From contig JAMQCK010000033.1 in assembly GCA_024196135.1 (NCBI GenBank), positions 1 to 64,000 of the forward strand: a stretch of 64,000 nucleotides of DNA, given 5' to 3'. The stretch comes from Pleurotus ostreatus/Saccharomyces cerevisiae fusant (lineage: Eukaryota > Opisthokonta). How positions within the stretch are numbered: position 1 is the first letter of the stretch; the number at the start of each line of letters is the position of its first letter. Below, piece by piece: positions 4,923-61,711 of this stretch. A program made the translations under genes and the position numbers. The notes beneath the pieces were generated by a model. The model searched no databases, was not told the DNA's origin, and saw nothing but the letters and a program-made list of their open reading frames with translations.

Positions 4923-4924
4923 GC

Positions 4925-8660: not shown

Positions 8661-10456
8661 ATGCCGCCAACGACTACGACGAAGAGCGCTCCGCGCAAAT
8701 ACGGCGGCAAGAGCAAGTGGGACCTGCGCGCGCTGGGTGTGGTGAGTAGAGCTTGCTGAGCTGGTGCGCGTAGGTGAAGGCTGACGCTTTTGCAGAGCAC
8801 TAAGCCGTCGAGGAAGAGCAAGGCCGGAGGGGCAAACGCAAAGTCCGGCGCGACAAAAGCGTCAAGCTCGATGAACACGAACGACGAAACGACGAAAACG
8901 AAGGTCGAAACGATGAACCTGAACATAAACAAGGAACCGGTGAACATAAACACGAAAAACGAAGGTAGCAAATCGCAGGACAAGGAGGTCATGGAGGTGC
9001 GTCGTCTAAGTAGTATAGTGCTAGTATACGGACTGACAAATGCGCTATAGATGTTCCGGAAATTCGAAGAAGCCCAGGCGGCGGCGGCGCGGGCAGCGAG
9101 CGAGGTTGATAGTTGCTCGGAGGCATGCAACGCTTGTATCGCCTCAGAGGCGTCCACTGCCTTCACCGACAAGCCCTCGTTTGACTTCGGCATTTCCGAG
9201 CCATCCATCGCCTTTGGCAGTTCTGAGTCGACCAACGCTCTTGCCATCCCCGAGCCATTCAACATCTTCGACGACAAACCTTCGTTCGACTTTGGCATTT
9301 CCGATTCTTCCAACATCTTCGACATCTGCGACTCAACCAACATCTTCGACGACAAACCATCCAATATCTTCGGCCTCCGCGAGTCACCTGACATCTTCGA
9401 CGACAAGCCCTCTTTCAACTTCGCTACTACGTCCAGCGGGGACCTCATCCTTCTCGACTCGCAGGGTGTCGAGGTGTCGGTTTTGGGGACGTATTCGATT
9501 CCAGAAAAGGACCGGATGCCTACTTTTGAGGGCGAGGTGGTACGTCGTGGTTCAGCTTCGGACACAGAAGGTTACGGCGCTGACACTACCGTCAACAGGA
9601 TTTCTTCAGGGACTGGACCCAAGAACAACTCGACGAGGAGCAGCACGCCCCCATTAACGACCGAAAAGGCGCCCGCCTGCGCCTAAGACGCAAGCGGTAC
9701 GACTTTGTCGGCGGGCCTGGGTATAGGGTGTATTTGGCGAGGAGGGTGAGTGGTTGTTTCTTCGTTCATGTTCAATCCAACTTCCTCCATGTTCCCTTTC
9801 CCGCTCGTACGGCTTTCTCTGCATTTACCACTCATGTCGCTCTCCTGCCCTCCCCCTTTTTCCTACCCTTGCTCTTCCACCAATCCCTTCCCTTACTCGA
9901 CCATGCCTCCCCCTCGCCCATTCAGCCCTAATCCCTCTTACTCACCCCCACTCTCCAGGAACGCCGCCTCACCGAAGACGAGGACGATTTCCTCCCCCGC
10001 AAGCGGATGCATACCACCCAGGACCTTGCGAATATGCGCGCGAAGTGGAAGGTGAGGAGAGAGAGGCCGTTGAGGGAAAGGGCGATGAGGAGGTGTTTGC
10101 GGCAGCGTGCTCTGCGCGGACGACCACTCGGGGAGAATGCCCATAGGGAGGAAGAAGTGTATAAGAGGCGAGAGGTGATTGTGGAGCGGAAGGTACTCGC
10201 GAGGCTGAAGGCGGATGGTAGCATGGGCGATGATGGATGCCAGATCGACGAGGTTTATGCGGTGGGTGGTGATGAGCAGGCGATGGGCGAAGAGGATCAT
10301 TCCACGGAAAATATGGAGGAAGGGAAGGAGGACGAAGATCATCCGATGGACGACGAAGAAGAGGACGACGACGACGACGACATGGACACTCCCCGCGTCT
10401 CATTCCTGCGCGAGTCGACGCCCGAGCCGGAGGGGGAGGAGGATTGGGTTGTGTAG
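8661..10456 (+). CDS. Orphan family protein with PTFE/YLARR exon module, 471 aa
   Basis: Five exons, all phase 0: 8661-8741, 8796-8996, 9051-9539, 9599-9745, 9959-10456. The N-terminus is basic and Lys/Asn-rich. Exon 3 carries several repeats built on IFDDKPSFDFGIS. Exon 3 ends in MPTFEGEV. Exon 4 (49 codons) encodes RLRLRRKRYDF and GYRVYLARR and stops exactly there. Exon 5 has MHTTQDLANMRAKW, a basic helical segment, and an acidic tail with DDEEEDDDDDD, ending EEDWVV. The PTFE end, the YLARR end and the T-x-E/D-D-L/I-A motif recur in the genes at 20913 and 27610, and the ending resembles the latter's EWEVV. There are no known domains, signal peptide or membrane segments. Function unknown; a nuclear location is a guess from the basic and acidic composition. 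Confidence 0.75.
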
Positions 10457-10855
10457 GATTGAGGGAGTGTGGAGGAGCGCGTGAAGGTAGAAGAGAAGGA
10501 TGCGGGAGGCGGTAGGTAGGATGGTATGTAGGATCGAACATGTGTAAGCTACGATGGATTTTTGTCTTACCAGATGCATATGCGACCGAACGACTAGGTA
10601 TAATTTACACTTTATGCGCGCCCAGCTGCCACAGCGTGGATTGGGTTTCGTTGAGCACGGCACACTCGAGCGGCTGGGTTTCTCCAAAGCGACGCACTCA
10701 AGCAAGATCCTGAGTCTCGAGTTCCGGGTGAACGTTTGCGTCGATGCGGGCATACTGTATATGGAAACGCGAGATACAGAATTACAAGAAATCACAAGTG
10801 AGATAGGTACATCGGAAAGCAAAGGGACAAAGGTAGCGCTAGATGCTCGACGCAG

Positions 10856-11670
10856 TCACTTCCGCCACAGAAGTCCCGGGAGCGGGGCTGCAACTGGGAA
10901 GTCGAGGATGGGCTCGATGTCTTCGAGGTCGAGGGCGGCGAGCTCATCCATCGGTGTGACTTCCCCAGAGGATAGAGGAGAATTCGTGAGAGAGGGAGAA
11001 GACAAGGAAGTCGTGCCCCCGAAGGGGACAGTTGGCGACTCCGAAAAAGGCAAGAGACATGAGGACTCGAAGGGAAGCCCAGGCGACGAGCTCGTGGACT
11101 TCGATTTGGTGATCGGGGACACGGTGCTCGACTCGAAGGGAAGCGCGGGCAACGGGCTCATGAGCTCGGCAGAAGTCTTTGACCTCGTCACAAGCGACAC
11201 AGTTGCCAACTCGACAAAGGGTGAGAATTCCTGCGTTTCCGCGACGTAGTAGCAGATTCGCGCGTGACATATTTCGCCAATTTTGGGCTGGATAGGTGAG
11301 GGTGGTTAGCATATATGCGTTGATGAATTGGGTTCGAGGACGCACCGAGGGAAAACGCGAGGGAGATAATTGCGGCGACATGGACGGAAGCGAGCATGAG
11401 CTTAACACCGACGCAGCCTCGCAGCCTGACGGCGACGCAACCTTAGAGCCTGACGGCGACGCGGCTTCAGTGCCTGACGGCGACGCGTTCTCCGAGCTGG
11501 CGACTCTGCTGGTCTTTAGGCGCATCAGTGCTGAGGAGTCCTGCATCTGAGCGCGCTAGAGGAGGGTCAGTAAATGCATATATGCGGACTCGGAGGACCC
11601 TGACTGTCTCCCAGAGCACGATTTTAGACGTGACGTTGACACCGGAGAATGGGGCGAGGGTGAGGACCAT
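10856..11670 (-). CDS. Ser/Pro-rich orphan protein, 235 aa
   Basis: Three phase-0 exons (11670-11605, 11555-11346, 11287-10856). Both introns contain a GCATATATGC stretch and a CTRAY branch site. The protein starts MVLTLAPFSGVNVTSKIVLW. It then has three near-tandem ASPSG repeats (ASPSGTEA, ASPSGSKV, ASPSGCEA), a segment PKIGEICHARICYYVAETQE, and a Ser/Thr/Pro-rich region in which PFESS occurs twice. It ends DIEPILDFPVAAPLPGLLWRK. Adjacent spurious frames on the plus strand come from the same sequence. No family recognised. The compatible splice phases over three exons support the model; the first exon is the least certain. Confidence 0.55.
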
Positions 11671-11689
11671 AGTGAGGGCGTGGGCGGGG

Positions 11690-11785
11690 GGGAGGGAAGA
11701 GGGAAGAGGTGAGGGCGGGAGCGGAGGTAATAGAGGGCGGGAGGGAAGAGGTGAAGAGTGAAAGGAAGAGGTGAAGGTGGGAAAG
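11690..11785. repeat. Purine-rich tandem repeat (GGGAGGGAAGAGG)
   Basis: Nearly pure purine on the plus strand, made of GGGAAGAGGTGA and GGGCGGGAGGGAAG units. It lies just upstream of the Ser/Pro-rich gene on the minus strand, so it would be a polypyrimidine promoter tract for that gene. Confidence 0.6.
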
Positions 11786-13435: not shown

Positions 13436-14871
13436 ATGTCCCCTGTTAACTCGCTCCTCCTCTCCTCGGCCTTTTTGGCCGCGCTCGCCAAGGCGCAGTC
13501 GACCTTCCCGGCGACGCCTTTGGCGGAGAAGCACTACAAGTACCCGGATGAGATTGTGAGTGGGATGGGTGTGGTGGGGAGGAGGCGATCGCTGACGGGC
13601 ATTTGTAGCCGTACAAGGTCGACACCGACGAGGGTCTCATCCGCGGCACGCAGTTCGGCTACAACCTGTGCAACTCGACCACGGAGGGCCAGGACGCGCT
13701 GTGCCAGACCAGCTTCCTCAACTCGCTCGATGGTGCGTGCTGGCTGACATGCTGCCGATCGTACGTCCTATATTTACGCGTTTTTCTCAGACTTCTGCCT
13801 GTGGGCGCCGTCCGAGCCCAACTCGATGATTGCCGACACGGAGGGCGAGGAGGTCGCGTGGTGCACGAAGCCCGGTCGTGGTGCGTGGGCTATCTCTCGT
13901 CGGACGGACTTGGTTGACTGACACGACCTTTAGGCACCCGCCTCATCCCCGAGGGCGCGCTCACGGGTGTGCAGTTCATGCGCACCTCGGCGTACGTCCA
14001 GGTCATTGGCTTCATCGACCAGACCAAGATCAACATCGCCGACGGTGACTACGGTGGTGAGCTCGACCCGCACGGTGCCGATCTCGTGAGTGAACCTTCA
14101 CCTCTTCCGCATACGCCTTCTGATCCCCCTTTCAGCGCGGTAACCCCATGGGTGGTCTCGTCTACTCGACCGCCTTCAGCTCGAGCGGTGACGAGTACAC
14201 TCAGATGATCGAGTGGCACAAGTGTGTATCTCTCCATCACGTCGCAAGGAGACTCATATTGACCCCATCACAGCTTCATGGGCGGCAACGCGTTCTGCTT
14301 CAAGGTCTGCGACCCGTCCAACGCGCACGCCGCGGACTACTGCCAGCACATCTACGATCGCATCGGTTGCGCGTACAACGCGCCCAACAACGCGCAGGAC
14401 AAGGTCTTCGAGTCCTGCGAGGGCGACCTCCAGGACTTCCCCGGCGTGTACACCGGCGAGGACGGCCAGGTGACCACCTACACGCAGCCGCCTGAGTCGC
14501 TCGGCGCCATTACCACCATGCCGTACCAGCCGAAGGTGCCCGCGTCGAGCAACTGCCAGACGTTCTCGAGCGCGGAGCTGTACTCGGCGCTGTCGTCTGT
14601 GAGCGCGGATGGGGCGAACTCGCACTCGGGGTCGGCGACGTCGAGTGGTGCGGAGTCGAGCAAGACGGCGGGTGCGAGCGGGAGTGGGTCGTCGGCGACG
14701 CGCGGGGCTGCGACGAGCGGCGGCGCGGCGAGCGGGACGGCGGAGGGGGCGCAGGCGACGGGGAGCAATGCTGCGATGGGCGTGCGTGTGTCGGCGGAGG
14801 GTGTTGCGTGGACGGGTGTGTTTTGGGCGGGGCTGGCGGCTGTTGCGGGTGCGGTTGGTGTGATGGCTTAA
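13436..14871 (+). CDS. DHA1-type cell-surface glycoprotein ('macrofage activating glycoprotein'), copy 1
   Basis: Six exons (13436-13555, 13609-13732, 13791-13880, 13934-14085, 14136-14221, 14274-14871), 389 aa. A signal peptide (LLLSSAFLAALAKAQ) is followed by a cysteine-containing domain with DFCLWAPSEPNSMIADTEGE, GYNLCNSTTEG, MGGLVYSTAFSSSGDEYTQM and CFKVCDPSN. A Ser/Gly/Ala-rich linker follows, then a hydrophobic C-terminus typical of a GPI-anchor signal. This pattern matches the basidiomycete family annotated 'macrofage activating glycoprotein', related to Cryptococcus DHA1 antigen. It is a secreted or wall-bound protein of unknown biochemical role. A second copy with the same exon pattern lies inverted at 35101-36465. 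The family call is confident; any function beyond cell surface is not. Confidence 0.85.
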
Positions 14872-17011: not shown

Positions 17012-17269
17012 GGTGACAGTAAGGGGGGGCGAGGACGAGATGAGTGGGGAGTCATCGGGCCAGGAGCCCTTTAAAGGACCCAGCGGAGTGGCGCTGTAGT
17101 AGCGGCCGTCCCATGGGTTGCTAACAGCCGCCCATCAGGCGTCTATCGCTGTTTCCCAGAGCGTCGACGCCCTTCTTCGGGAGGAGCCTGCACAGCACGA
17201 GCTCATTTCCTATTGCGCGATAGCGGCCGGCGGTACTTTAGATTCATGACAGCAGTCCTGCCGAAATGT

Positions 17270-19230: not shown

Positions 19231-19236
19231 TGCGGG

Positions 19237-19244
19237 TATAAAAG
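19237..19244 (+). promoter_or_regulatory. TATA box TATAAAAG
   Basis: A consensus TATA box, 128 nt upstream of the ATG at 19372 and preceded by a GC-rich tract. It supports the start chosen for that gene. Confidence 0.6.
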
Positions 19245-20912: not shown

Positions 20913-21801
20913 CTAGTCGTCCGCTTGGGATGGCGGCGGCGCACGCATCGCCTCGGCATTCCCCTTGAGCAGCCACTTGCGGAGAGGCATCTCGCGCGTG
21001 CCGCCCCTCTGGCTGGCGATATCCTCCGGGGTCGCGATGTGGTTTTGGCTGCGGTAGTACTCGTCGACTGACTTGTCGTATGCCTGGTTGGGGGTGAGTG
21101 GATGAGATGGGGGAGGGGAGTTGGTAAGCGCACCTTGCGGGCAAGGTACGCCTGGTACTTGGTCTTGTCGAAGGCGAAATCCTGGCGGAAGCGGTGGAGG
21201 CGGATTGCGGGATCGTAGCCCGCATTAGTTTTTTGCGCGTGTGCGTCGGCGGCCACGATGTCGCGAGGGAGAGGGTTGATCTGAGGGGAAGTGAGCAGAG
21301 GGCTGCGTGTAGGAGAGCACACGTACGTGGCATGCCTCAAAGGTAGGGAAGGTGGAGAAGAGGTATGTTTCGTCATCCTCGAAAATGTCGTTGGGCGGCC
21401 ACATCTCCACGACGGCGGATTGGGACTCGACGGGGACGGGGACCTCCTCCGGGACGTCCGTTGGTTCTTGGGGGGACTGCTCCTGCGTCTTCGTTAGCAA
21501 AGACGGCGCAAGTATGCGCGTGTAAACGCACCTCCTCAGTTGGCGCCTCCTCCTCCATATTGTCAAGCCAACCTCGCTTAACCATCTTGCTTGCGAACTT
21601 GACTTCCTCGATGGTGGGATATTCGGCAGTGAAGGAGTCGAAGTACAGGGAGAGGAGGTGGACGGCCTGAGACGAGTGTCAGACGGGCTCTCTGAGGACG
21701 GGACGGACTTCACGCACCTCGCGCTCCAGCATCGCGTTTTCCTCTTTCTTGCTGACGCCCCAGGCGAGCTGCGAGCGGTCGAGAGTGTATGCGTAGGCCA
21801 T
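20913..21801 (-). CDS. Orphan family protein with PTFE/YLARK exon module, 230 aa
   Basis: Five phase-0 exons: 21801-21718, 21666-21532, 21482-21327, 21280-21134, 21083-20913. It starts MAYAYTLDRSQLAWGVSKK. Exon 3 is acidic and proline-rich and ends YLFSTFPTFEACH. Exon 4 (49 codons) ends in a basic/aromatic stretch RLHRFRQDF and then KYQAYLARK, with the intron falling exactly after it. Exon 5 has YRSQNHIATPEDIASQRGG and a basic LRKWLLKGN segment. The PTFE end, the YLARK end and the TPEDIA motif align with the genes at 8661 and 27610. This is the most compact and best-formed family member. No known domain, signal peptide or membrane segment; function unknown. Confidence 0.75.
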
Positions 21802-27609: not shown

Positions 27610-28890
27610 CTAGACGACCTCCCATTCCCCATCCGCGCCATTCCCGTCATCCCGCGCCCCCGCCAGCGCGCGCTCGAACGCGGCGAGCTCGGCGTCGGAG
27701 ATCATGAAGTGTTCTTCCTCCTCGTCATCGTCCGTGTCGGCTGGGTAAGTTGGGCGATAGCTCGTGCGAGCTGCCCCGAAGGTCAGACGGCAGCTCTCGC
27801 GGGGTGCGCCGAAGGCATAGGGCCCGTTATCCGCCGCACAGGACTGGAAGTCGGGCAGTTCTTCGCCCTCAAAATCCGTTCCAAAGGTTGCCCCATGCCC
27901 CTCGTCATGCATCGAGAAATACTCGAGACCGTCAGTGTCCTCCGGATACCCAAGTTCATCGCCATCGTCCGGATACCCCTCATCCGCGCGCGCCGCCGCC
28001 TCGAGCTGCACCATCTCGTCGTCCACCTCGTACTCGAGCTCGTCCATGTCGCGCTCCATCGCGTCGATCTCGGCCTCCAATTCCTCCATGTCGTTCGGCG
28101 CGTCGCTCTCATTGAGATGGGTCTCAACCTGTGCGATCCGTGCCGCACGAGCAGCCTCCTCCCGAGCAGCCGCTTCGCTCGCCTCCCTCGCCCGCCGCGC
28201 CATCTCCACCTCGCGCGCGCACGCTAGGAGAGCTTTCTGGCACAGCGTCTTCGGCTGCTTGATCCTAAGCATCCGCTCGAGGGCCGCCAGGCGCTCCCGC
28301 CTCGACTGACTGCCGCCGCGCTTCAGCTCCGCGATCTCTTCCCGCGTGTACTCGTAGCCATGTCGGCGGGCATGCGCTTCCTGCGCGCGTGCCTCCGCCT
28401 TGCGGTCCTGATACACCGCGTACCCGAACCCGATCGTGAAGTCGTAGCGCGCGCGGCGGAGGTGGAGGCGGGCGTGGGCGCGGAGGCGGAGGACGGGGGA
28501 GAGGGTGGGGTTGGTGATGATGGCTAACTTCGCGCTGTCAAAGGAGTCTTGCGTCCAGTTGGCTTGCTGCAAGGCGAGAGGGTCAGAGGTCGTGAGGGAA
28601 AGAGGGATCAGTGCACGTACCTTCTCGTCCTCGAAGGAGGGGTGGAATACCGTGGCAGAGTAGGGTGGCAGAGGCTGAACAAGTGTAGCATCGTCGATAG
28701 ACCAGGTACCGGTGGTTGCAGGCTGAGGGGATATTGCATTGAGTGGCTTGTCCTGTTCAAGTCCACGAAGCCAACGCAGCGTCTGTGAGCGTAGTGGGTT
28801 CAGCTCCCGCCATTCAAAGAAGATGTTCACGCACCTGCCGATCCAATTCAGCATCCCTTGCATTTCTGCCCCACCCCATCCGAGCAACAT
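27610..28890 (-). CDS. Orphan family protein, coiled coil and acidic tail, about 408 aa
   Basis: Two exons (28890-28621, 28566-27610) with a 54-nt in-frame intron. Exon 1 ends in VFHPSFEDEK. Exon 2 opens QANWTQDSFD and reaches RLHLRRARYDF and GYAVYQDRK. This is the family module, but here it runs on without an intron. Next come YEYTREEIAELKRGG, a long Arg/Ala/Glu coiled coil (about residues 170-270), and an acidic region with EELEAEIDAMERDMDELEYE. The protein ends GEWEVV, like the gene at 8661 (EEDWVV). The start at 28890 is uncertain because the first 30 codons (MLLGWGGAEM...) are atypical. No known domain; function unknown. Confidence 0.65.
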   Translation of the reverse strand: MLLGWGGAEMQGMLNWIGRCVNIFFEWRELNPLRSQTLRWLRGLEQDKPLNAISPQPATTGTWSIDDATLVQPLPPYSATVFHPSFEDEKVRALIPLSLTTSDPLALQQANWTQDSFDSAKLAIITNPTLSPVLRLRAHARLHLRRARYDFTIGFGYAVYQDRKAEARAQEAHARRHGYEYTREEIAELKRGGSQSRRERLAALERMLRIKQPKTLCQKALLACAREVEMARRAREASEAAAREEAARAARIAQVETHLNESDAPNDMEELEAEIDAMERDMDELEYEVDDEMVQLEAAARADEGYPDDGDELGYPEDTDGLEYFSMHDEGHGATFGTDFEGEELPDFQSCAADNGPYAFGAPRESCRLTFGAARTSYRPTYPADTDDDEEEEHFMISDAELAAFERALAGARDDGNGADGEWEVV

Positions 28891-31800
28891 CTTCCGATTC
28901 CATAACGTTTGACGGGGAGCAAAAGGATTCCAGATGGGCGATCAAGATAAGTGTGAAAGAGATGGACAAAGCGCACGAGATTACAACGCTGAAAGGGGAG
29001 CACAGGCCACCCACGTGAGCAGGCCTATCGCTACATGTCACAGGGCATAATCCGGCCCCTCCCAACTCCGACTGCGCCCCGCCACCTTCGCAACTGCCAT
29101 CAACTACCTTCCGGGGAAAGGGTGAGAGGTGGGAACACGAGGCAGTCACGGGATCGGAACGTGTTTAGGATCCGCGGGAGTCCGATTATCGGGATCAATG
29201 CCGCTGTTTTGGATGTCTGACGTGCCTAAGGGATTGACGGCAAGCCGCACTGTAAAGGCGAAGAGCAGCGAGCGAGTGAGTGGCGAAGAGAGAGCTGGGA
29301 AAGATCTGAAGTTCACCTGTCTATACAGTCTGACCGTGGCATCTCCGCGCTGTGGCGACAGGAATGAAGGCGCCTGGCGCCCGCGCTCGAAAAACCTTTT
29401 GTGGCAAGTTAGCGTATGCTGGGGCAGACACTCCGTGAGCGCGCGCGGTTTGTCAATGCAGCGAAACTGATTGGTTGGTCTTAGTAGGCCACGTACCCTC
29501 AGCGCTGCATCTACAAGTCCCCGGCCTCGTACCTATGTGCATTTCTCCTTTGACGGGCCTCTCCGCCTTCGGCTTGATCGAAGCGGTGACTGTGTTCGGG
29601 CTGGAGGTGCTGGAATCCTCTTGTATAAACCTGCCCGCCCTTCGTGTATCCAGCTGCCGGAGAGATCAACGAGGCAACAGATGAAGCTGCGCGGTCATGC
29701 GAACCTTCGCTTGTTGGGTCCCGAGTGCTCTTCCAGCGCTGCAAGAGAGTACATCGGTTGCCTGGTGCGGGTGGCTTTAATTATAGTCTTGTGTTCCAGA
29801 GACGTACCAAGAGCGTAGAAGACTTGAGGTGCGTCGTCGGTTGTCGTTGAGCGAGGTAAGCCTGAGTTGAGCTGTGGGCCTGCACAGTAAGTAACCATAC
29901 TACTGAGCAGGAGAGCTGGCTCAAAACCAACACAAACAGCATCCTCGTCCTTACGATCCGATGCGCAGCGCCTTCTCTACGTCGATAAACAGACTTGGAC
30001 CTACACGACTCGCCGGGGCTAGTCGAGGAGACCACTGCACTGTGGCACGATGGTCATCGATATTCATCGGTCGACGAGGCTTAACATCGTCGCTGTGCCA
30101 TCCTCGCGAGGATCTTCATCCTGTCCGAAGGTGTGAGCTTCCCCCGTCTTAGGTGTGAGCTTCATTTCGACTACTGCATAGCTGCTGGACTGCCGGAGGA
30201 GTCTACGTTCGTCGGAAGATCGGTGAGTATAGCAGTGATTCATGTATCCCCCTCCACTTACGTTGCAATATCCAGAGCTTAGACGAGGACGGAACAGGCG
30301 AGGACGAGCCTCGGGTCTTGCAGACTGCAGTAGCCGTGGCCGCTTAGAGAACGCTGGTCGACCATTCCAGCCTCATAGGCGATGTTGCTTCATCACGTTC
30401 AATGCCAATCAGAGTCTTCGAGGAGCTCAGAGAGATCATTGAACGTCAGGCAAGGATGCGCGGGGCAGTCCCTTCGGGTGATCGTGGAAGTAAGTCAACG
30501 GGCGCCGCTTTGCCGTGATGGCTCCTTGTTCCGTTCTCTCATGGTCTTTCGGGCTCGTTCTTGTCCTTGACCTCGACTTCGGCCATCGCGCTTCATGCTG
30601 CTCTAACCCAACGGACATCTCAGTCTTGATAAGACTGGCAGTCGGAGCCGCGAGCGAAAGCAGAGAGACTCGTCGCAATCTTGTGATCGACAACGCGCTG
30701 GATGTTTTGGGCGTGGCAGCCTGCTCTGTCGCCTTGCGGACCCCTTAGAGAGAGTCAAGAATATCTTGACTGTACTGGTGCGTCTCCGTGTGCAATCTAT
30801 TCGAATTCGAACGCTGATATGCGCGCAGGGTGTAGGACGTACTAGGATGATCGAGGAGTTTACTGGCTCGCCCAAATATCCAAGCACTAATTCCCTCCAT
30901 GTAAGACCCCAAGCACGTTCAATATACACATTGAGCCCTCTCATAAAATGGGCGACACCTATCCGTGCTCTATCATCCAGACCCGGCAGTAATGAAGCAA
31001 GCTGTGGCGCCACCAACGTCGTATCCTCAATCTTCATAGAACATCTCTGGCCAGGATGCGTTGGTGTGCGTCTTTATCTATTCTGCCCTCAAAGAGGAGA
31101 TTGAATCGTGCGCATCATGTAGACGTTCTGACGGCTTGATTATGACGAAGAGCGCTATCACGCAGACCTCCGTCTCGCCACTATCCACCCACGATCCCTA
31201 GTCCAGCCACCCGAAAACATGGACCGCGTACTCTACACATCCCTTCTAGTCAGTGCGAACACTCATACGCCAGCTTAATCTTCATAACAGTCGAGCGAGG
31301 TCGACGGGACTGGCCGTCCCGTCAGAGATCCTGTAGCAGGCGCTCTCCCCTCGGTTCATGTTCGTCTGCTTGACCACTCCCCACGCATCTTGCTCCCCGG
31401 CTCACGCATATCTCACTCAACCTGGAACATATCCTCAGCGCGCTTCCACTGTCGCAGGAATTTCCCTCACTGACTTGCATACCCAGCGACGGGGGATGGC
31501 CCAATCCAGCGATCTAGAGTCAGCGAAGGAGAGACTCCCCGCATCTCATGCGGATCAGGCGTCGAGGGTATGACGTCCTCACGTTCCTGACTGGGCATGT
31601 CGTCCTCTTTTCTGCGTGCTCGTTGGGGCCTCCACTGCGGCGAGCTGGCCTTCAGCTCTGCGGTTGATTGCAGGATGAGGCTGGGTACGTAGACATGATA
31701 TATCGAGGTGGCGTTCACGTTGACGAGGGGCGACGAGGGGCGCGATAGCATCGGTCGCGGAACACATGGGATACGCGGAGTACAGGTCTGCACGATTGCA

Positions 31801-32782: not shown

Positions 32783-34075
32783 ATGCCCGTCTACATGCGC
32801 GGCACCTCTCGCCGCACTCCAGACCGCCGCTACGTCCCCTTCACCCCATCTCCCCTTCGTACAAGCTCGATCACGAGAACGGACACGGTGTGCAGCTCGC
32901 TGGGAGCACGGGGGACATCGCAGCCTGAAGCGGTGACCTACGCTGCTCCTCCGGTTGCCAACTGCATGACGGCCCAAATTGTAACTTGCACGGTGCCTCA
33001 GCTTGCGCCTCGCGCGGTTGGGAAGATGCTCATGAACGAGGGCGGAGATATTGGTGACGACGACGACGATCTCCTCAACGATCCAGAATTCCTCAATGAC
33101 CTCACCGACTTCGTGAACGGCGAGGACGAGGACGATGCGAGGCCCTCGTTGAGCCGTATGACCCTCTTCAAGGAGCAGCCCGACACATTTGCTTCATTTG
33201 AGCGTTCTTATAGTGTGGTGCGTGCTCTCTAGAGCTTAAAATCGCTTACGCTAATACTGTTCGCACAGTGCGCGGAATGGCACGAGAAAGAAATGGCCGA
33301 GTTCCAGGACAAGCGAGAGAAGGGCCTGCCGCTCGTCGACGACATCGACGCCTACCACCGTGTGCACGGGCATCGTGCCCGCTGCGCTTTTAGCGCCCGT
33401 GACAGTGGTGACTTCACAAAATACCAGGCGCGCAAGGTGCGTACTCCTCCTGTTCTGGTGCTTCGCGGGAGTGCGATGGCTGACCCGATACGCATTCAGG
33501 CAAGAGCTCAGGCGGAGGCAGAGGCGGAGGCACGCGCGTGGCTTGCGAGCGGTGGTGCCGTCGACGAGGCGGCGCGGCGCGCGCGACTTCGCGCACTGAG
33601 GAGGGAGGACAGGAGCCACCCCGTTTACCGGAATCGCCAGACCTGGAAGCGGAGGTACGAGGCGAAGAAGGCCGCGGAGGTAGCGAAGGCGAGGGCGGAG
33701 GAGAAGCTAGCTCAGGAGCGGAGCGAGATGTCTGAGGAGGAGGCCAAAAAGAGGGCGGAGGCGGAGATGGCTAGGAAGGCGAGGGCGGACAAGCGGGCCT
33801 GCGATCGGGCTAAGAAGGATGCGGAGCGCGCGCGCAAGCTCGCCCATGCCTTCCCGATCTCGGAGAAGGAGAACGTTCCCGCACGACCGGCGAAGGAGCA
33901 AGAGAATGGCACTGCGAAGACCGGGCAGTCGAAGCGCCAGCGCCTTCCTGCGCAAAAGCCCACACGGCCCGCTCTCCTTGGAATTGGAAGGCCCGGCCGC
34001 CTGCGCCCCCTGCCGCAGAAGCCCACGCCGCCTACCCTTTCTCAGCGCAATATCCTTGGCTTTCTGAAGCGCTAG
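32783..34075 (+). CDS. Orphan family protein with ARK exon module, 392 aa
   Basis: Three phase-0 exons: 32783-33217, 33269-33436, 33500-34075. The second intron is 63 nt and in frame, so reading through it would add 21 residues; its position just after YQARK matches the family and supports splicing. Residues 1-60 include RRYVPFTPSPLRTSS. Residues 85-130 are acidic (GDDDDDLLND). Exon 1 ends DTFASFERSYSV. Exon 2 (56 codons) contains RVHGHRARCAFSARDSGDF and KYQARK. Exon 3 is a highly basic Lys/Arg/Ala/Glu coiled coil, then a Pro/Lys tail with QKPTRPALLGIGRPGR and a final LSQRNILGFLKR, which may bind DNA or be nuclear. The module match is weaker than in other members. Function unknown. Confidence 0.7.
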
Positions 34076-35100: not shown

Positions 35101-36465
35101 TTATGCCATCACACCAACGGCGCCCGCGATGGCCGCCGCCGCCACCCAGAACACGCCCATCCACGCGACGCCCTCGACGCCGACGCGCACGCCCATGGCC
35201 GCGTTGCTGCCCGTCGTGTCCGCGGCCGAGCCCGTCGTCGTGCTCGACCCGCTCGAGCGCGACGAGGAGCCGGACCCGCTGCCCGACGCCGAGCCGCTCC
35301 CACTAGCACTCGCCAGCGCCGAGTACAGCTCCGAGCTCGTGAACGTCTGGCAGTTGCTCGACGCGGGCACGCGCGGCTGGTACGGCATCGTCGTGATCGC
35401 GCCGAGCGACTCGGGCGGCTGCGTGTAGGTGGTCACTTGGCCGTCGGAGCCGGTGTAGACGCCGGGGAAGTCCTGGAGGTCGCCCTCGCAGGACTCGAAG
35501 ACCTTGTCCTGCGCGTTGTTGGGCGCGTTGTAGGCGCAGCCGATGCGGTCGTAGATGTGCTGGCAGTAGTCGGCGGCGTGCTCGTTGGACGGGTCGCAGA
35601 CCTTGAAGCAGAAGGCGTTGCCGCCCATGAAGCTGGAGCGTCATCAGCCGGGGATCCTTGCGACAGAGTGCAGTCTCGACTCACTTGTGCCACTCAATCA
35701 TCTGCGTGTACTCGTCACCGCTCGAGCTGAAGGCAGTCGAGTAAACAAGACCACCCATGGGGTTACCGCGCTGTCGGACATGTCAGTATTCCACATCGCG
35801 GCACGATACACGAAGAACATACGAGATCAGCACCGTGCGGGTCGAGCTCGCCACCAAAGTCACCATCCGCGATGTTGATCTTGGTCTGGTCGATGAAGCC
35901 GATGACCTGGACGTAGGCAGACGTGCGCATGAACTGCACGCCGGTGAGGGCACCCTCGGGAATGAGACGCGTGCCTGGGGCGAGGTAAGAACGCGAACGT
36001 GCGAGAAACGAGAGGAAGCATACCGCGTCCAGGCTTCGTGCACCATGCAACCTCCTCGCCCTCCGTGTCAGCAATCATGGAGTTCGGCTCCGACGGGGCC
36101 CAGAGGCAGAAGTCTGAGGACGATGGTGTAAGGTTGTGTGGATTCGAGGGCGTATGCACGCACCATCGAGGGAGTTGAGGAAGCTGGTTTGGCACAGGGA
36201 GTCCTGTCCCTCGGTGGTCGAGTTACAGAGGTTGTAGCCGAACTGGGTGCCGCGGATGAGGCCCTGGTCGGTGTCGACCTTGTACGGCTGGAGGCGGTGT
36301 CAGCATCTAGCACAGCAATCGAGACCGACCACGCACAATCTCATCCGGGTACTTGAAGTGCTTGCTAGCCAAGGGCGTCTCGGGGAAGGTACCCGTGGCC
36401 GCCTGAGCCTTGACGAGGCCGGCCAGGAAGACGGACGAAAGAAGGACGGGCGAAAGAGGCGACAT
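35101..36465 (-). CDS. DHA1-type cell-surface glycoprotein, copy 2
   Basis: Same exon layout as copy 1 (13436-14871) on the opposite strand. Six exons run from the ATG at 36465 (MSPLSPVLLSSVFLAGLVKA signal peptide) to the stop at 35101. The central domain is nearly identical to copy 1, including DFCLWAPSEPNSMIADTEGE, ADGDFGGELDPHGADL (Phe replaces Tyr) and CFKVCDPSNEHAADYC. The Ser/Gly linker is shorter (SASGSGSGSSSRSSGSS) and the hydrophobic C-terminal GPI-type signal is retained. Secreted, wall-associated protein of unknown biochemical role. The inverted pair about 21 kb apart suggests duplication followed by movement of intervening genes, or an inversion. Confidence 0.85.
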
Positions 36466-49714: not shown

Positions 49715-50427
49715 TCACAGGCCTTTATCGGCGCGCACCTTAACAAGCCTCGCCTTCCACGTCCTCATGACCCGCGCGAGGAGGAAGCGCAAGACCATCC
49801 GTCTCACGTAGATCCACTGTCCTCGCAAGCGCGGCATGTCCTTCTCCCAATGGTCACGCATCCCCCGCCTCTCGTCCTCGTCGACCTCCCCATGCTTCAT
49901 GTATTGCACGTAGCAGAATTGCGCGTGCGCCATTCTGCGCTGGTCCTTCGGAGAGTAGATCGTCAGACTCAATTGGCGGGGGATGAGTGCAGTGGACGCA
50001 CCTTAGCGTAGCAGTATTGTAGGTACTGCTTTGTACCCCTCCGGCCGAACGAGAATTTCTTCCTAGCGTACCACAGGTGGCCGATGTCCCGCGTCTCTGC
50101 ATTCGACTTGACGAGCATCGTGCGCTGGAAGGTAGGTTAGCGAGGAGGATGTAGAGGAGAGAGATAAGCGACGCACGGAAGCGGCCTCAATGGACGGGAG
50201 GTCGCTGGGGTACCCGGGCTTGTAGATCCTCTGCCAGTAAATGCTGAAGGAGACGGGGACGAGGACGCGCGGGATCTACAGAGAGTGGATCAGAGAGTCT
50301 CTCGGACAGAGGAGAGCGGTCCACGCACCTCGGGCTGAATTGCCTCGACCTCGCGCGGCGCAATGTACGCGACCGATCCCTCCGCGTCCGTGGTGTAGCG
50401 CAGGGGAGAGGGAGTAGGGACGACCAT
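49715..50427 (-). CDS. Orphan family protein, 181 aa
   Basis: Four phase-0 exons: 50427-50329, 50275-50177, 50124-50002, 49939-49715. It starts MVVPTPSPLRYTTDAEGSVA, sharing PSPLR with the orphan genes at 4050 and 32783. Exon 2 has LVPVSFSIYWQRIYKPGYP and ends LPSIEAAS. Exon 3 (41 codons) contains WYARKKFSFGRRG and ends YLQYCYAK exactly at the intron. Exon 4 has RMAHAQFCYVQYMKHGEVDE, then a basic aromatic helix (WIYVRRMVLRFLLARVM). It is the smallest family member and lacks the acidic or low-complexity tails of the others, so it may be close to the core unit. No known domain; function unknown. Confidence 0.7.
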
Positions 50428-53860: not shown

Positions 53861-54189
53861 ATGTCGCTGCCGCAGCCCAAGTCCCTCGCCAAGTCGTATC
53901 GCCCGGCGAGGTCGTCGATGTTGAGATTTTCTATGAAGCTGGAAGATATGTTGGGTTCGAGCCCGTCGGTTAAGAAGATTGAGACGAAGCTGGAGCGTGG
54001 AAGGGCTCAGGTGCGTTTGTATGAGCGAGTGGCTCGAGGGCTATCTTGACGATATCGTAGCCAAGCCTAGGGCGCAGAGGCTTTGCCAGGGTGGCACGAG
54101 AGATCGCGACGGCCTCGGATACCCTGCGGGCAAGTAACACGAATTCTGTGCCGCCACTCACACCACGCGAGCATCCTCAACCCCCCAAA

Positions 54190-54209
54190 TAGGGTTGCGC
54201 ACCGTCCGT
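54190..54209 (+). repeat. hAT left terminal inverted repeat
   Basis: TAGGGTTGCGCACCGTCCGT, followed by GTACGG/CCGTAC-rich subterminal sequence to about 54365. Confidence 0.9.
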
Positions 54210-54617
54210 AAGAAGACGGTACTTACGGGTCGTAAATACGGTACCGTACCCGTACCGTGAGCTGATCTGCACATGCCTTTTACGGACGGTCAACGGGCCG
54301 GTCATTTACCGTACACCCGTTCGTCTTTGACCCGTATACGGTACAATACGGGTAGCAAAAACAAAGTCCGAAAGTGCATGTCTTTCGTTGTATCTTGTCT
54401 CTCTTCATCGTGGAGCACGACACAGAGCGCATCACAAGGATCATTAGGGCGAACGCGGCCGCTTAGACCGACACACGGCCTGAAGGTGTTCTTATCCGCC
54501 ACCGTCGTTCCTCGTCTCGGTGCCTTCGTAGACACAAACCTGCAATATTGTAGGTACATTCATGATACATGGACACAATGCAGGATCACAAAGAGCCTGG
54601 GGGCTGCTGGACTTTGA

Positions 54618-54625
54618 TATATAAA
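54618..54625 (+). promoter_or_regulatory. TATA box TATATAAA of the hAT gene
   Basis: Inside the element, about 90 nt upstream of the first ATG (54714) and in the right orientation for the transposase gene. Confidence 0.55.
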
Positions 54626-54713
54626 CTCGGGAACTTGGGCGCTATCCGACACCCACTTTTCCCCACCCACTCGTAACTGCATACCATCGACGTGCTACGC
54701 CTAACCGCACATC

Positions 54714-57700
54714 ATGGACAATCCGGATGGGGGCATGCGAGCCCATCGCTCAGTCAAGCCTGGTAAGTCAGCTATCCAGTCCTGACCGTCCCGCTGAGTC
54801 CTGATATAATTGGCGGTAGTACTACGCCCTTCGCACATGCGATTCGTCAACTGCGCGACACTCGCGTGGTTTCTGATCCTACTGCTCATCGCTCTGATAC
54901 CTATCCCCCTCATCTACTTTGCCTATTCTTCACGCGCTTCCTGGTTTCATGCCTCTCTCCTTGATGCTGGCCCGGCGGCTATAGTTGCCCTATATGGCTA
55001 CTATGCCACTCTGTCCCTCTTCTATGGTGCGCTGAGTACTGTTCTTGCCTTTTCCACATCTTGTGCTTACGCCCTTTGCAGCAAACTTGCTCTTCCCTCA
55101 AGTTCTTGAGCTTCGGCAGGTCGTACAAGCCATTGCCGCTCCTCGTCGTCTCTACCGCCGCAGTCACATTTCCCACCTACGACATGATCGCTTCCGCAAA
55201 ATCATGGACCACGGATCGCCATTTACGGTATTTGTGAAGGGGGCCAATCCATCTGGTCGCTCTACACCTTTACGTGCGTTTTAGGCGTCCATTTCCCACT
55301 GCCCTGGCTGATCAAGCGCGCCCTTTAGTTGTCTATCCAACCACAACTGTTGGCGAGATCTTTTCCCTGCTGGATGAGCGCTCCACACTACCTGGACACC
55401 TCTGTACATCCGAGCATGGCTATATATCCACAGGAAGCACGCTTCGTCCACTTGAACCCCTGCAAACCCTTGCTGATGCTGGAGTCGGGCCTCTCAGCCA
55501 CATCGAACTGCGCTTGCGGGTCCTAGGCGGAAGCGGTGCGTGACTTGAGCTGGCGATCATTGACCCATATCTAAACTTATTCAGGCCAGGTCACAGGTGA
55601 TCCATCGCCTTCCATGCGTAATGGAGAGGGAGCTTCTCAAGCGTCAGATGATGGTATTCACTCTGTCCTTATGATCCTGTCGTGGCACTGACCGGTAATC
55701 CTCTAGTGTGCGGGAAGCGCAAACGAAGTCCGGAACACCATACGACCACGGCGGCCATTGTCTCTGATGATGAGCTCGACGAGGGCGTAGATCCACCATC
55801 CAAATCGAAACGACAGCGGAAGGCGAAGACCACTGCCGCGAAGACGTCTAGGAAGGCCGGCAAGCAGCCAGCCATGGTCAGCGAGTCTAGCGACGAAGAT
55901 GATGACCTGTACGTCGGCGGCGAACCTTCAGACTCAAGTGCGGATGAAGATTCTGACATTGAAGTGACGAACTCCGAGGTGAGTGGTGGTTTCTACCTTC
56001 AGCTCCTTGCCTTATCACTCTCGCAGCTTGCCGACACGTTGCCAACGAAGATTCCGGTTAAGAAGAAGCGAAGAGTCCCCTCGCAATCAACGACGAAGGG
56101 CAGGGGCAGCAAGGTGCCGGTTGCAATTCCCGCCACGACGCGCTCGCAGCCAGAAGCGTCTCCTGCCACCAAGAAGGCGAGAGCTGTACGTCGTCAGTGT
56201 CTCCGCAAGCAGCTTTACTGATTATCTACAGCCACGGCGTAGAAATCCGGTTTACTACTTCTACGAGGAGGTCGATCTCAACGCCAGCGGTCAGCGCGGC
56301 AATGAAGGCGACAAGCACTTCAAATGCTTTCATGGCAACCGCAAGACCTTTACAATCACGAAGGCCATGCGTGGCAGCCTCAACAGTAAGTTGTCAATAG
56401 CTCGCTTTACCGCTTGACGCTCATGCGCTTCAGGCCTCATCAATCATCTCTCGAACTTCGAGGGGCTTGCGGCCATGTACCAGATCCTTCATGATCGGGA
56501 CGGCCCTCTTACGGCCGAGGAGGTCAGCATTGCGCGTGGCAAGACACGCATGACGCCAGAGCTTGTGGCTCGGTACACCAAGCAGAACAAGAAGCGCCAG
56601 CAGAACATCAACGAGGCGTTCGAGAGACAGAAGGAGGCGCAGCAGGTCAGTACCCTCACTCGCTTTGTGACGCTCTGGCTGATGGACTTATAGGAGCCGT
56701 GGGACGACGAAGTCTTCAACAAGCTCTGCGCAGAATGGATGGTCTCGTCCGACCAGCCTTTCGACGAGATCGAAAACCCGGCGTTCATTGCTCTCATTCA
56801 GTATGCGCAGAATCACCGTCCCCCCGCCTCATTCCAGATGCCCAAACGCGACACCATTAAGCGTCGGGTCATGAGCATGGGAGATGAGACCATTGAGTCT
56901 GTGCGGTCCATGTTCTCGGTAAGCAGACGTCTCCTCTCGGGCATGCGTGATCCAGCTGATGCCTGTGCAGGAGCTCAAGAACCGCATCGCGATCTCGCTT
57001 GATGCATGGACTTCGAGCAATCAGCACGCTTTCGTAGCTGTTGTAGCGCACTATGTGAACAATGATGGCGAGCTAGGTATGTCGTGTGTCAAGGATTAGG
57101 AGTGCAGTAACTGACTGGAATGCTATCGCGCAGAGGAGCTCTTGATAGACTTTCAGGAACTTATTGGCGCTCACAGCGGCGAGAATATGGCCGACGCCGT
57201 CTGGAAGACCCTCAAACTATACAATATTCAACACAAGGTGCGCATTTTCTACCGCATTTTTGAATGATACTGAACTCTTGCCAGATCATCGCCTTCGTCA
57301 TGGACAATGCAACGAACAACGACACGATGCTGGAGGCCATTGAGCGCAAGTGCGTTGAGGCTGGTATCAAGTTCTCCGCCAAACAGGCTCGGCTTCGCTG
57401 CATGCCCCACACCATTCATCTCGCTGCGATGAAGGTGAGTCAATTCAGCGCTTTCTCATTCCCCGGTCGTTGATCTTATTCTTTCCAGCTCCTTGAGGCT
57501 ATTGGCGCTTTCCCGAAGACGGACAAGGACAAGGCCACTGCTCAACCTCACGTCAACTACCAAGACTCTGTTACCGTGCCATTGCATAGGTCATACGACG
57601 ATGATCATGGCGACGAGCAGCCTGAGCAAGGGGCGCCGGAGGAGAACACTTCGAGTGGGGTATCGACAATTACGCGCATCCTCACAGTTGTTGAACGTGT

Positions 57701-58967
57701 AAGTCTTCTGTTCATCTTCTTATAGCATCGACTGATGTGTCGCTATCCTGCTATAGCTGCGCAAGCTCGTCAAGGCCGTCCGCGTCAGTCCGCAGAGGCG
57801 GCAGGGCTGGTATGCGACTATACGTGCTAAGCGCGCGGCAGCTGTAGCGGCCAGAAAGGAGCCCATGCTGATGCTGATTCTGGATGTGCGAACGCGCTGG
57901 TCGTCGACTCATCAGATGATCCGTGCGTGTTCCCCAAATCGTCTTGATCTTGTGTTCCTCATTCTTAAACAGGACGCGCGCTTGACTATCAGGATGTCAT
58001 AGACACGTACACCGGCATACGCGAGCATCGACACCTAGAGCTCGACGATAAAGACTGGAAGTGTCTACGACTTGTTTCCGATTGGCTCAAGGCATTCCGG
58101 GAGGCGACTACGAACATGTCTACGACGTCGACGCCAATGCTCTCATACGTGCATATTACATTCCGTGTCCTTCAGAAACAAATCAAGCAGGACCTTCGCA
58201 AGCTTCCCAATGACGTCCCTCCCGAGATCAAGCAGGGCCTCGTTGATGCCAACCAGAAGCTGGCGGAGTACTACGCCAAATACGACGAGTCGTACTTCTA
58301 TACATGGGCGAGTTGTGAGTGATTGTCTTGTCACGCTGCGCACCAATTCTGATATTCTCACTAGTACTTGACCCCCGCTTTTCGCTCGCGGGCGTGAAGA
58401 AGGAGCTCAAAGACGACTGGGAGCTGTCAGCCTACCTCGACGAAGCAAAGGGCGAGCTTGAAAAGTACTTCAAGGAACGCTATGCACCATCTCCTACGCA
58501 CACACCAAGCGACGGAGACGTATCATCATCAGAATCGGAGACGCCTAGTCGACCCGGCTCTCCTGACAGGCTCAACCTCAAGGACCGATTCCGTGAACAT
58601 CGGACCGCTGAGTTTGATGAGCTTGCGGAGTATTTTAGGTTACCACAGGAGGACATTGAATGCGATCCCATCGCATGGTGGCATTGCCGTCGCGCACGGT
58701 ACCCCAACTTGTACCGTATGGCTTGCGACATTCTTTGCATCCCGGGTACGTGCACTGTTACGCTCTTCCCGAAGTCAGTGGTCTGATAGTTTGATAGGTT
58801 CGGCAGTTGCGGTCGAGCGGGTCTTCTCGGGGGGTAGGGACACCATCTCCCTACGCCGCGCACGCCTCAATCCGGAGACGATTCGTGTCCTCATGCTCGT
58901 GAAGCACCATCTCCGCTTGCAGCAATGCAAGCTCAAGGCCGAGGAGGCTGCTTTAGCCATTCTGTAA
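54714..58967 (+). CDS. hAT transposase with N-terminal ubiquitin-like domain
   Basis: Multi-exon gene in the hAT element with no stop or frameshift that I can see. The first ATG after the TATA box opens a short exon and then a hydrophobic stretch (LAWFLILLLIALIPIPLIYF, from about 54858). A second possible start is M-DHGSPFTVFVKGAN at 55204. From there a ubiquitin-like unit runs to PLSHIELRLRVLGGSG. Next come an acidic/basic linker (SESSDEDDDL, KKKRRVPS), a BED-type zinc-finger-like segment (HFKCFHGNRKTFT ... INHLSN), and the RNase H-like core (ISLDAWTSSNQHAFVAVV, FVMDNATNNDTML, CMPHTIHLAA). The hAT dimerisation domain is DPIAWWHCRRARYPNLYRMA and then SAVAVERVFSGGRDTISLRR. It cuts and joins DNA at the element ends. 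The core call is firm; the N-terminal start is uncertain. Confidence 0.88.
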
Positions 58968-59263
58968 GCTTCAAACAGGTTTCTTCTTGTATATACTTTA
59001 AGCCTTGTATCCCTAAATACTTTTTCTTATCTTTTTTTCCATTCAATCGAAAGCCCGCCTGCCCTACGCGCGCGCTACGACGCCAAGTTGAACTTCGTGA
59101 AGGGCACGTGACTGTACGTGACCGGCAGGCGTCATCCGTATCCCGTATACGGACGGGACGGGCGGCACCCGTACCGTCCGGGGTCCTGACCATCACAGTT
59201 ACGGTACGGATACGCTACGGAGGTGACCGTTTTGACCGTACCCGTCTTGTCCGTATCCGTAAA

Positions 59264-59283
59264 ACGGACGGTGCGCAACCCTA
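59264..59283 (-). repeat. hAT right terminal inverted repeat
   Basis: Exact reverse complement of the left end over 20 bp. The subterminal stretch 59125-59263 is rich in CCGTA/TACGG motifs. Confidence 0.9.
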
Positions 59284-60142
59284 CCCCCAATATCCCTCCT
59301 TCACCTCATTCAGCCCCGAACGCAGGGCCTGCGCCTGCCACCGTAACACCACCCTCTGCCCCTCCACGAAAGTTGCCGAAGCCAAACCCGTTGCTTGAAC
59401 TGAGAGAGATCACGAAAGCCCATACCGCGCTGATGCCAGCCTCGTCTCGCCCCAAGAGCTCCGAGGTATGCCTGAATGCCGCTTGACCATCCTCGTGCTC
59501 ATTCAGGCATTACAAACAGACATTCATCGATACTGACGAATCCAGTCCTGCCGCTAAGCTTGAGCTAGCACGCCTCGCATACGTTTCCAGCACCCATAAG
59601 CGCCGCCACTACATACACCACAGGGTATTGACAATCCATTGCCTCCTGTCTTCCGCTCAGCGCTGACATGACTGCAGGACCATGCTCTCGCGAAAGAAAA
59701 GCGCGAGAGGGCCCTGCTTGAGAAAGCTCGTGAAGCCGATGTTCCGCTCGAGCGCACAGCGTACCCCACCCTCCACAAACCTCCCTCCCTCCGTAAACGG
59801 CTTCTCGAGGTCACGGCGATGCAAAAAATTACCGTCCATCATTTAGCAATGTCGAACGTGAGACGTGCGCGTGAAGATGCGAAGCGGCAGAAGGAGCTGC
59901 GTGAGAACAAGAAAGAGGCCGCCACTTGCGGAGTGAAACCGCAGTGCCATGGAAAGCCGGCAGAGTCTCGCGAGAAGAATCGGTCTCCGAAAAAGCAGCA
60001 GCCTCTGCGTAACGCTATTTCCGAGCTATCTAAAGAGCAAAAGGAGCCGCAGATGCTGTCGGAGTATAACTTTGTGAACAGTGGCATGCGTGGAAAAGGT
60101 CCTTACTGCGAGATGCTCGTTTTCCCTCCGTATGTACAGTAG

Positions 60143-60521
60143 TCATAGCGAACTGTGGATGCGATAGAATGTCCGATCCGTGCCTGTTTCGATTCGGCGT
60201 GCGTTGAGTGAGTTAAGGTAGCCTCTAGTAAGTCTACAGGCGTACTAAATAATCAATTTCGCGATCTCCACCAGGCGCGCGACATCAGTCAGGTGAATAT
60301 TCTGTCTTCATACCTCGTCGGAGATGCATGCCACGCTGTGAGTATCCCCTTAAGGTAGATGATGGCTGCCGCGTGGTACGCCACATCGGCATCTTCCATA
60401 AATCAACATGGGCCAGTTTGTGCACGTGCTGTAGCCTTTGTTGTCCACCTCCATCTGCGTGCCACCTTGGAGACCGTCAACCGCGAGTTCTGATTTTTGT
60501 CCTCTCTATCCGACGTTCACC
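60143..60521. other. Intergenic
   Basis: Short spacer between the two tandem paralogues. Leader of the gene at 60522; nothing else seen. Confidence 0.4.
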
Positions 60522-61711
60522 ATGTCGCCGCCGCCACCGAAAACCCGAACTGATCCCTACCGACCTATTAAGTCGTCAAAGCTGAAGACTTCGTTGAAGC
60601 TGGATGACATTCTCGGTGCGAAACCGATGGCGAAGAATATAGCAGAACGTCTCTCGAGGGCCAGGCATCGTGTACGTGCACTGTACCCATTGCGTAACAC
60701 GCCCTCCTGATCGTGAATGTCCAGTGGGGAAGGCATTCTGCTCGCGCGCACTTTGCGGCGGCAGCGCGCATGCTTGAGGAAAAAAGAATTATGGTTCCCA
60801 AGGAGCGGGAAAGCACTCCTGTCAGCTCCGCTCTGCCACAGCAAGAATCCCCGAGTGGAGAAGGCGCTGCGCCATCTCAGTCACCGATGCCCTCGCAGTT
60901 CCGCGATGCCGCGACACCGATGAAGAAGGGTCGACGCATCTGCAACAACATGCTGAAGCGCTTGCGGGAACTCAAGGAAGAGGTATCCCCAGGCTCGGAT
61001 TCATCTCATCCCACCTTCGAGTGCCCCGAGGTACGCCCATGCATACGCTAGTCTCTTCCACCATGCTCAATATATGTGCAAGCCAATCTCCGACACGGCG
61101 CCGGATAGCGCGGCTATGAGGCTTGCGACAGCGCGTCGCAACTTTACCGCTGGATACCCGCAGAGATATGCGGAATATCTTTATAATAAGGTGCGTGATA
61201 CGTGTTAACTTGTATGGGCATCTCTCACTAGTTAATCCGTTAGATATGCAGACTCGAGGAGAAGAAAGAACAAGCGGCCCAACCGGCTGAGATCAACACC
61301 GACGAAGCGGATGCGAACGAGCGCGATTTCTGCAAACCTCCGCATCTCCACTACTCCCTCCTGGAGGTTATGACCATGCGCCAGGTTGCGCTCAAGCACG
61401 CGGAAATCAGATCGCGGTACGATGCGAAAAAGAAGCGGGAACAAGCGAAGCAAAGGGAAGCGTTGCGGAAGTCGAAAAAGAAGGTTGCTGGCGAATCTAA
61501 GCAGAAGTCGAAAAAGAAGAAATCCGCCCCCGAGCCTGCACCTGCACCTGCGCCTGTACCTCAGCGCCAGCCTCCTCCGAGTGCAATGGATCCCGAAGCA
61601 ACACGTGAAGCGGTTGCACGGATATCTGGAGATCGAGTCCAGCCGCAGATGCTGAGGATTTACGAGATGTTCTACAAGCGCGGTGTTCTGGACAAGCTTA
61701 CACAGGACTGA
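60522..61711 (+). CDS. Orphan family protein, intact paralogue, 343 aa
   Basis: Four phase-0 exons: 60522-60671, 60725-61030, 61083-61190, 61244-61711. It starts MSPPPPKTRTDPYRPIKSSK and continues LKLDDILGAKP. Exon 2 ends SSHPTFECPE. Exon 3 (36 codons) contains MRLATARRNFTAGYPQRY and ends YAEYLYNK exactly at the intron. Exon 4 begins ICRLEEKKEQ and has LLEVMTMRQVALKHAEIRSR. It continues as a Lys/Arg/Glu coiled coil, a Pro/Ala tract, and a C-terminus with DRVQPQMLRIYEMFYKRGVL. It is the tandem, same-strand copy of the split gene at 53861. No known domain, signal peptide or membrane segment; function unknown. Confidence 0.72.

What the first reader, a model, noticed from the sequence alone, without database searches (positions are those of the whole stretch)
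8661..61711. A dispersed orphan gene family defined by one conserved exon module
Seven loci in this window (8661, 20913, 27610, 32783, 49715, 53861, 60522) share an arrangement rather than overall similarity. A P-[TS]-[FI]-E motif lies 3-4 residues before a phase-0 intron (MPTFEGEV, FPTFEACH, HPTFECPE, HPSFEDEK, LPSIEAAS; looser at 32783). The next exon is 35-56 codons and holds R-x-R-x-[RD]-F/Y followed by Y-x-x-Y-x-x-[RK] at the exon end (YRVYLARR, KYQAYLARK, YAEYLYNK, YLQYCYAK, KYQARK). In six of seven loci an intron follows at once. Three members then have T-x-E/D-E/D/L-I/L-A. The tails vary from acidic to coiled coil. I know of no named family with this signature. Seven copies in 64 kb, on both strands and separated by ordinary genes, suggest an active expansion.
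Basis: partly seen in the sequence, partly recalled or inferred. Interest (0 to 1): 0.88.

Follow-up and report, generated by a model that had tools for sequence, protein, structure and literature searches.

The report
Clustered orphan gene family in Schizophyllum
A stretch of a split-gill mushroom genome carries a row of strongly diverged sister genes that share one small conserved protein module matching no family we searched; it is a real but functionally uncharacterised gene family.

Summary
The core observation holds. Six of seven loci (G1-G5, G7) carry the module with a PTFE-like motif just before a phase-0 splice site. The locus at 53861 (G6) does not: it is the 5' end of a G7-like gene cut by a hAT transposon (54190-59283). 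A profile built only from the six window modules found an eighth member, G8, 5 kb past the window end; it shows the motif and both phase-0 introns, which the profile did not contain. Left-out members beat all 500 shuffles in 6 of 7 cases (G4 narrowly), G5 all but one. The tails mostly do not. The organism is Schizophyllum commune; public gene models agree with key splice sites of G2-G5. All members found lie in one 62-kb stretch, so 'dispersed' is not supported, though diverged copies elsewhere could be missed. 'Active expansion' is not supported: paralogues are diverged, and G2-G5 have orthologues in other strains. No Pfam match above cut-off, no PDB-sequence match, no clear fold match; named protein hits are all S. 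commune. Best guess: a helical docking module shared by fast-diverging proteins. Function is inferred, not shown.

The parts
8661..10456 (+). G1, 471 aa, five exons; motif MPTFEGEV 9516-9539, module exon 9599-9745
   Evidence: left-out module recovered at E 6.9e-5
20913..21801 (-). G2, 230 aa, five exons; motif FPTFEACH 21327-21350, module exon 21134-21280
   Evidence: public models P0001 (93% identical) and P0002 (80%) have the same splicing
27610..28903 (-). G3, 395 aa; motif HPSFEDEK 28621-28644, module 28399-28566 at the start of a long last exon (no intron after the module); N-terminus uncertain
   Evidence: orthologues P0007, P0008, P0013, which differ at the N-terminus
32783..34075 (+). 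G4, 392 aa; motif FASFERSYSV 33188-33217, module exon 33269-33436; intron after the module uncertain
   Evidence: orthologues P0009-P0012, P0014, P0015; weakest by sequence
49715..50427 (-). G5, 183 aa, four exons; motif LPSIEAAS 50177-50200, module exon 50002-50124
   Evidence: orthologues P0020, P0021 with matching splicing
53861..54189 (+). G6, 5' part: first exon of a G7-like gene (53861-54010), cut off by the hAT element
   Evidence: 46% identity to G7 exon 1, E 7.2e-6
54190..59283 (.). hAT transposon inserted in G6
   Evidence: 20-bp perfect terminal inverted repeats, 7-of-8 target duplication, hAT dimerisation match at 58398-58964, just under the Pfam cut-off
59284..60142 (+). G6, 3' part: module-like exon 59508-59624 (degenerate) and a G7-like tail
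   Evidence: module score reached by 28 of 500 shuffles; tail likeness to G7 by eye
60522..61711 (+). G7, 343 aa, four exons; motif HPTFECPE 61007-61030, module exon 61083-61190
   Evidence: left-out module recovered at E 0.0062

Best explanation
Shown: a gene family of S. commune with eight copies in 62 kb (one broken by a hAT element, one just outside the window), defined by a short P-[TS]-[FI]-E motif on an exon end and a 36-56 residue module on the next exon, with mostly unrelated ends. Inferred: the copies arose by old local duplication on phase-0 exons and then diverged fast outside the module. Inferred: the module folds as a basic, aromatic helical hairpin (helix ...RLxRARxxF, tight turn, helix YxxYxxRK...) and, with the motif, docks on one shared partner (a protein or a nucleic acid), while the differing acidic, basic or coiled-coil ends give each protein its own effect. 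The most probable setting is inside the cell, as adaptors or regulators.
For: The six-member module profile found G8 (E 4.2e-4; 19.1 bits against at most 13.4 in 40 resampled contigs), and G8 has the motif and both phase-0 introns that the profile did not contain. Shuffle and leave-one-out tests. Columns E, R, F, Y invariant in ten aligned sequences from seven genes. In G3, G4 and G5 the motif+module is more conserved between strains (91, 91, 99%) than the N-terminal part (46, 78, 75%; gaps counted as differences, and G3's public models differ in their start). AlphaFold2 of the G3 module: helices 6-18, 24-45, 47-68, block pLDDT 75-93. Clustering: 5 of 5 genome hits of the module-end pattern (control 0) and 6 of 18 of the motif pattern (control 13) lie in C536.
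Against: No function, expression or partner evidence. In G2 the module is not better conserved between strains than the rest (80 against 87 and 83%), and in G3 the first 60 tail residues are better kept (95%) than the module (91%). Model pTM is 0.39 and 0.27 for full-length P0002. G4 joins mainly by motif, exon layout and place; G4 and G5 profiles against the others give only P 0.038 and 0.032 (HHalign probability under 2%), and against each other they align at their N-termini, not the module. G8 begins with a hydrophobic stretch, so one setting for all members is not assured. The patterns were written from these genes, and single-protein genome searches mostly miss the known paralogues too, so absence elsewhere is weak evidence.
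Confidence: 0.5

Rival explanations
1. The module is a nucleic-acid-binding helical domain: the basic helix contacts DNA or RNA and the family are chromatin or transcription regulators.
For: Motif+module net charge 0 to +7 with R-x-R; acidic 40 residues before the motif in G1, G2, G3, G4, G8 (-3 to -20; not G5 or G7); short basic clusters in G1, G4, G7, G8.
Against: No Pfam match above cut-off, no PDB-sequence match, no clear fold match; G2, G3 and G5 have no basic cluster by the simple pattern used.
Confidence: 0.25
2. The cluster is a self/non-self or genome-conflict locus whose members diverge under arms-race or balancing selection.
For: Clustered, diverged paralogues known only from this species here; S. 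commune is described as the most polymorphic species known, with haploblocks (abstract of PMC9187340).
Against: Motif+module is conserved between strains in G3-G5; contig C536 carries none of the 31 STE3 and 13 M3-peptidase matches listed, so it is not an obvious mating locus; no test of selection was possible without strain DNA.
Confidence: 0.12
3. The resemblance is convergence of low-complexity, charged, intron-rich genes, not common descent.
For: G4 not recovered when left out; profile-profile P 0.03-0.04 for G4 and G5 against the rest; tails mostly no better than shuffles.
Against: G8 was predicted out of sample with the full layout; 0 of 500 shuffles for 6 of 7 members; the members found sit in 0.15% of the genome.
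Confidence: 0.05

Closest known systems
Lineage-restricted (orphan) clustered gene families of fungi (a kind, recalled from general knowledge)
   Same: Local paralogues, strong divergence; all named relatives returned are from one species
   Different: One conserved exon module on phase-0 borders; G2-G5 have orthologues in other strains
S. commune B mating-type locus (PMC8161036; passages seen)
   Same: Clustered paralogues in the same species, conserved between strains
   Different: Made of STE3-type receptors; none of 31 STE3 matches in this genome is on C536
hAT transposons (Pfam Dimer_Tnp_hAT)
   Same: The element at 54190-59283 inside G6
   Different: It interrupts one member; nothing ties it to the family's origin

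Membership tests
The proposed family (motif + module) | P-[TS]-[FI]-E, three residues, phase-0 donor | tested here: met
   G1, G2, G3, G5, G7, G8 met; G4 variant (ASFE + five residues); G6 not
The proposed family (motif + module) | Module similarity above shuffled sequence | tested here: met
   0 of 500 shuffles for G1-G4, G7, G8 (G4 narrowly); 1 of 500 for G5; 28 of 500 for G6
The proposed family (motif + module) | Phase-0 intron right after the module | tested here: inconclusive
   G1, G2, G5, G7, G8 yes (G2, G5 by public models); G3 no; G4 doubtful
Any Pfam-A family | Match above the curated cut-off | tested here: not met
   G1-G5 and G7, G8, P0007, P0008, P0013: none; best is Nup54 in P0008, E 0.0022, 18.4 bits against 30.5. 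Among 15 aligned sequences the best E is the same one
A known fold in the PDB | Clear structural match | tested here: inconclusive
S. commune mating-type loci | STE3 receptors (B) or a neighbouring M3 peptidase (A marker, recalled) | tested here: not met
   No listed match on C536 (31 STE3 and 13 M3 matches elsewhere)
hAT transposon at 54190-59283 | Terminal inverted repeats, 8-bp target duplication, dimerisation domain | tested here: met
   20 of 20 bp, 7 of 8 bp, E 3e-4 (21.0 bits, cut-off 21.4)

The most novel reading that the evidence does not exclude
The motif plus module is a new protein domain, born and duplicated within Schizophyllum, that lets a cluster of otherwise unrelated proteins plug into one shared cellular machine: a case of a new domain being spread locally on symmetrical exons.
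Probability: 0.2. Interest if true: 0.6.

Novelty: new member of a known kind. Interest (0 to 1): 0.38.

Why it matters
It gives a testable example of a family known so far from one mushroom species with public strain genomes: one small module kept on symmetrical exons while most of what surrounds it drifts. If the module binds one partner, the cluster would show how new domains start and spread. As it stands it is one more orphan family without a function.

Tried and rejected
Members elsewhere in the genome: searches with a 141-aa part of G1, a 120-aa part of G8 and whole G5 and G7 found none outside C536. These searches are weak: G1 found only G3 besides itself (E 0.17), G7 only G6, G5 and G8 none of the known paralogues. 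The C1058 match (E 0.27) was read and shows no such layout that I could see; the C1256 (E 4.4) and C966 (E 0.7) matches were not followed. Motif hits: all 12 hits outside C536, and 26 of the 45 hits (up to one mismatch; control 30) outside C536, were scanned for the module; none had it (36 loci, best E 0.5); 19 were not scanned. A third conserved block in the tail looked likely by eye and was dropped: only G5 beat all shuffles. A shared N-terminal PSPLR in G4, G5 and an ORF at 4050-4967 was left as a curiosity (3 hits, 0.52 expected). A scan of viral contigs could not be made; the fold search in viral proteins gave nothing below E 0.9. NCBIfam: two weak single-member matches (E 0.002 and 0.07 among 18 sequences). 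A bacterial-type promoter scan does not apply here. Papers: the listings (titles and starts of abstracts; not all papers that matched were listed) showed nothing on these genes; for the locus tags, the 10 of 140 papers listed matched only unrelated numbers. Of papers I saw the outline and abstract of PMC9187340 and passages of PMC8161036.

Full report
What was checked. I read all seven loci and built gene models by hand. G1, G2, G3, G4, G5 and G7 carry the reported arrangement. In five of them the Glu of P-[TS]-[FI]-E stands exactly three residues before a phase-0 donor; in G4 the form is A-S-F-E with five residues. The next exon (in G3 the start of a long last exon) holds the module of 36-56 codons. 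All 22 introns in the seven models, G8 included, are phase 0; paralogues inherit phases, so these are not 22 independent events, and 9 of the 22 agree with public models.

The seventh locus. At 53861 only a first exon remains, 46% identical to the first exon of G7 (E 7.2e-6). A hAT element follows at 54190-59283: 20-bp perfect terminal repeats, flanks CCCCCAAA and CCCCCAAT, and a dimerisation match at E 3e-4, a hair below the Pfam cut-off. Beyond it a G7-like tail continues to 60142. Its motif position differs and its module-like exon is not clearly above chance (28 of 500 shuffles). So it is a broken G7 relative.

Statistics. A profile of the six window modules, run over six frames of the whole 150-kb contig and 26 other loci, gave the six members and one new locus at C536:70337-70699 (E 4.2e-4, 19.1 bits); the best of 40 resampled contigs gave 13.4 bits. 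Reading that locus gave G8 (C536:69356-70715, 380 aa): PSFE, three residues, phase-0 donor, 40-codon module ending YDEYLQDK, phase-0 donor. The motif and the introns were not in the profile. Leave-one-out with seven members recovered G1 (6.9e-5), G2 (0.015), G3 (8.7e-6), G7 (0.0062), G8 (4.2e-4); G5 at 0.54, just ahead of the best non-member at 0.69; G4 was not recovered. With the motif included, left-out members beat all 500 shuffles in 6 of 7 cases (G4 narrowly, 9.3 against 7.8 bits), G5 all but one. Tails: G5 beats all shuffles, G8 is reached by 24, the other six of eight by 52 or more. G4 and G5 profiles align to the rest at the same core but weakly (P 0.038 and 0.032, HHalign probability under 2%); against each other they align at a PSPLR stretch near the N-terminus instead (P 0.011).

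Where it occurs. The nearest proteins are from Schizophyllum commune: P0001 (Loenen D, 93%) and P0002 (H4-8, 80%) for G2. All named hits of the three protein searches are S. commune; the eight unnamed ones come from contigs of 561-1,989 bases. In one search only the 7,997 candidates sharing most words were scored. G1, G7 and G8 were in the alignment queries but no orthologue of them was recognised among the hits; they were not searched alone. Orthologue clusters hold 10 (G2), 11 (G3), 11 (G4) and 14 (G5) member sequences by adding the listed counts of the named hits; some may be one strain twice. Public models agree with the splice sites of G2 and G5 and the motif intron of G3 and G4; they read through the module-end intron of G4 and differ at the start of G3.

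Clustered, as far as can be seen. In the 40-Mb genome the module-end pattern has 5 hits, all in C536:9722-70461, control 0; an earlier, narrower form, written before G8 was known, had 3 hits, all in the window, control 0. The patterns were written from these genes, so the informative part is the absence of others; G3 and G4 do not fit by design. The motif pattern has 18 hits, 6 in C536, control 13; all 12 others were scanned for the module without success. Single-protein searches found no member outside C536, but they also miss most of the known paralogues, and the module profile itself was run only on C536 and 36 other short loci plus L005. A strongly diverged copy elsewhere is therefore not excluded. 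Some contig pairs of this assembly carry like matches (for example C630/C818), so it may be partly dikaryotic. No STE3 or M3-peptidase match listed lies on C536, so this is no obvious mating locus.

What it is and how it may work. No Pfam match above cut-off in G1-G5, G7, G8, none in PDB sequences. AlphaFold2 on the G3 module with 18 sequences: mean pLDDT 74, helices at 6-18, 24-45 and 47-68 with block means 75-93, pTM 0.39; full-length P0002: pLDDT 60. No clear fold match. Between strains the motif+module is the best kept part in G4 and G5; in G3 it is well kept (91%) but the first 60 tail residues are kept better (95%); in G2 it is not better kept than the rest (3 to 7 sequences each). From this I infer a small helical docking module; partner and role are unknown.

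The family is real; 'dispersed' and 'active expansion' are not supported. Module identity to G1 ranges from 17 to 50% (G3 is the closest). I rate it a new orphan family of a known kind, of moderate interest.

Noticed in passing
window 54190-59283: hAT transposon with 20-bp perfect terminal repeats inside a G7-like gene.
   Followed up: yes
window 14263-14871 (+) and 35101-35640 (-): Two similar copies of one gene, about 20 kb apart in opposite orientation, by reading of the listed ORFs.
   Followed up: no
window 4867-4880 (-), 32846-32859 (+), 50399-50412 (-): PSPLR near the N-terminus of G4, G5 and of an acidic/coiled-coil ORF at 4050-4967; 3 hits where 0.52 are expected.
   Followed up: partly
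C536:71567-72325 (+), C536:90664-91401 (-); C536:110873, 112952, 139151: Other sets of similar ORFs on the same contig (beginnings alike), so the region seems rich in local duplicates.
   Followed up: no
G000 contigs C630/C818, C866/C722, C708/C573: Pairs of contigs with like family matches, as if both nuclei of a dikaryon were assembled in part.
   Followed up: no
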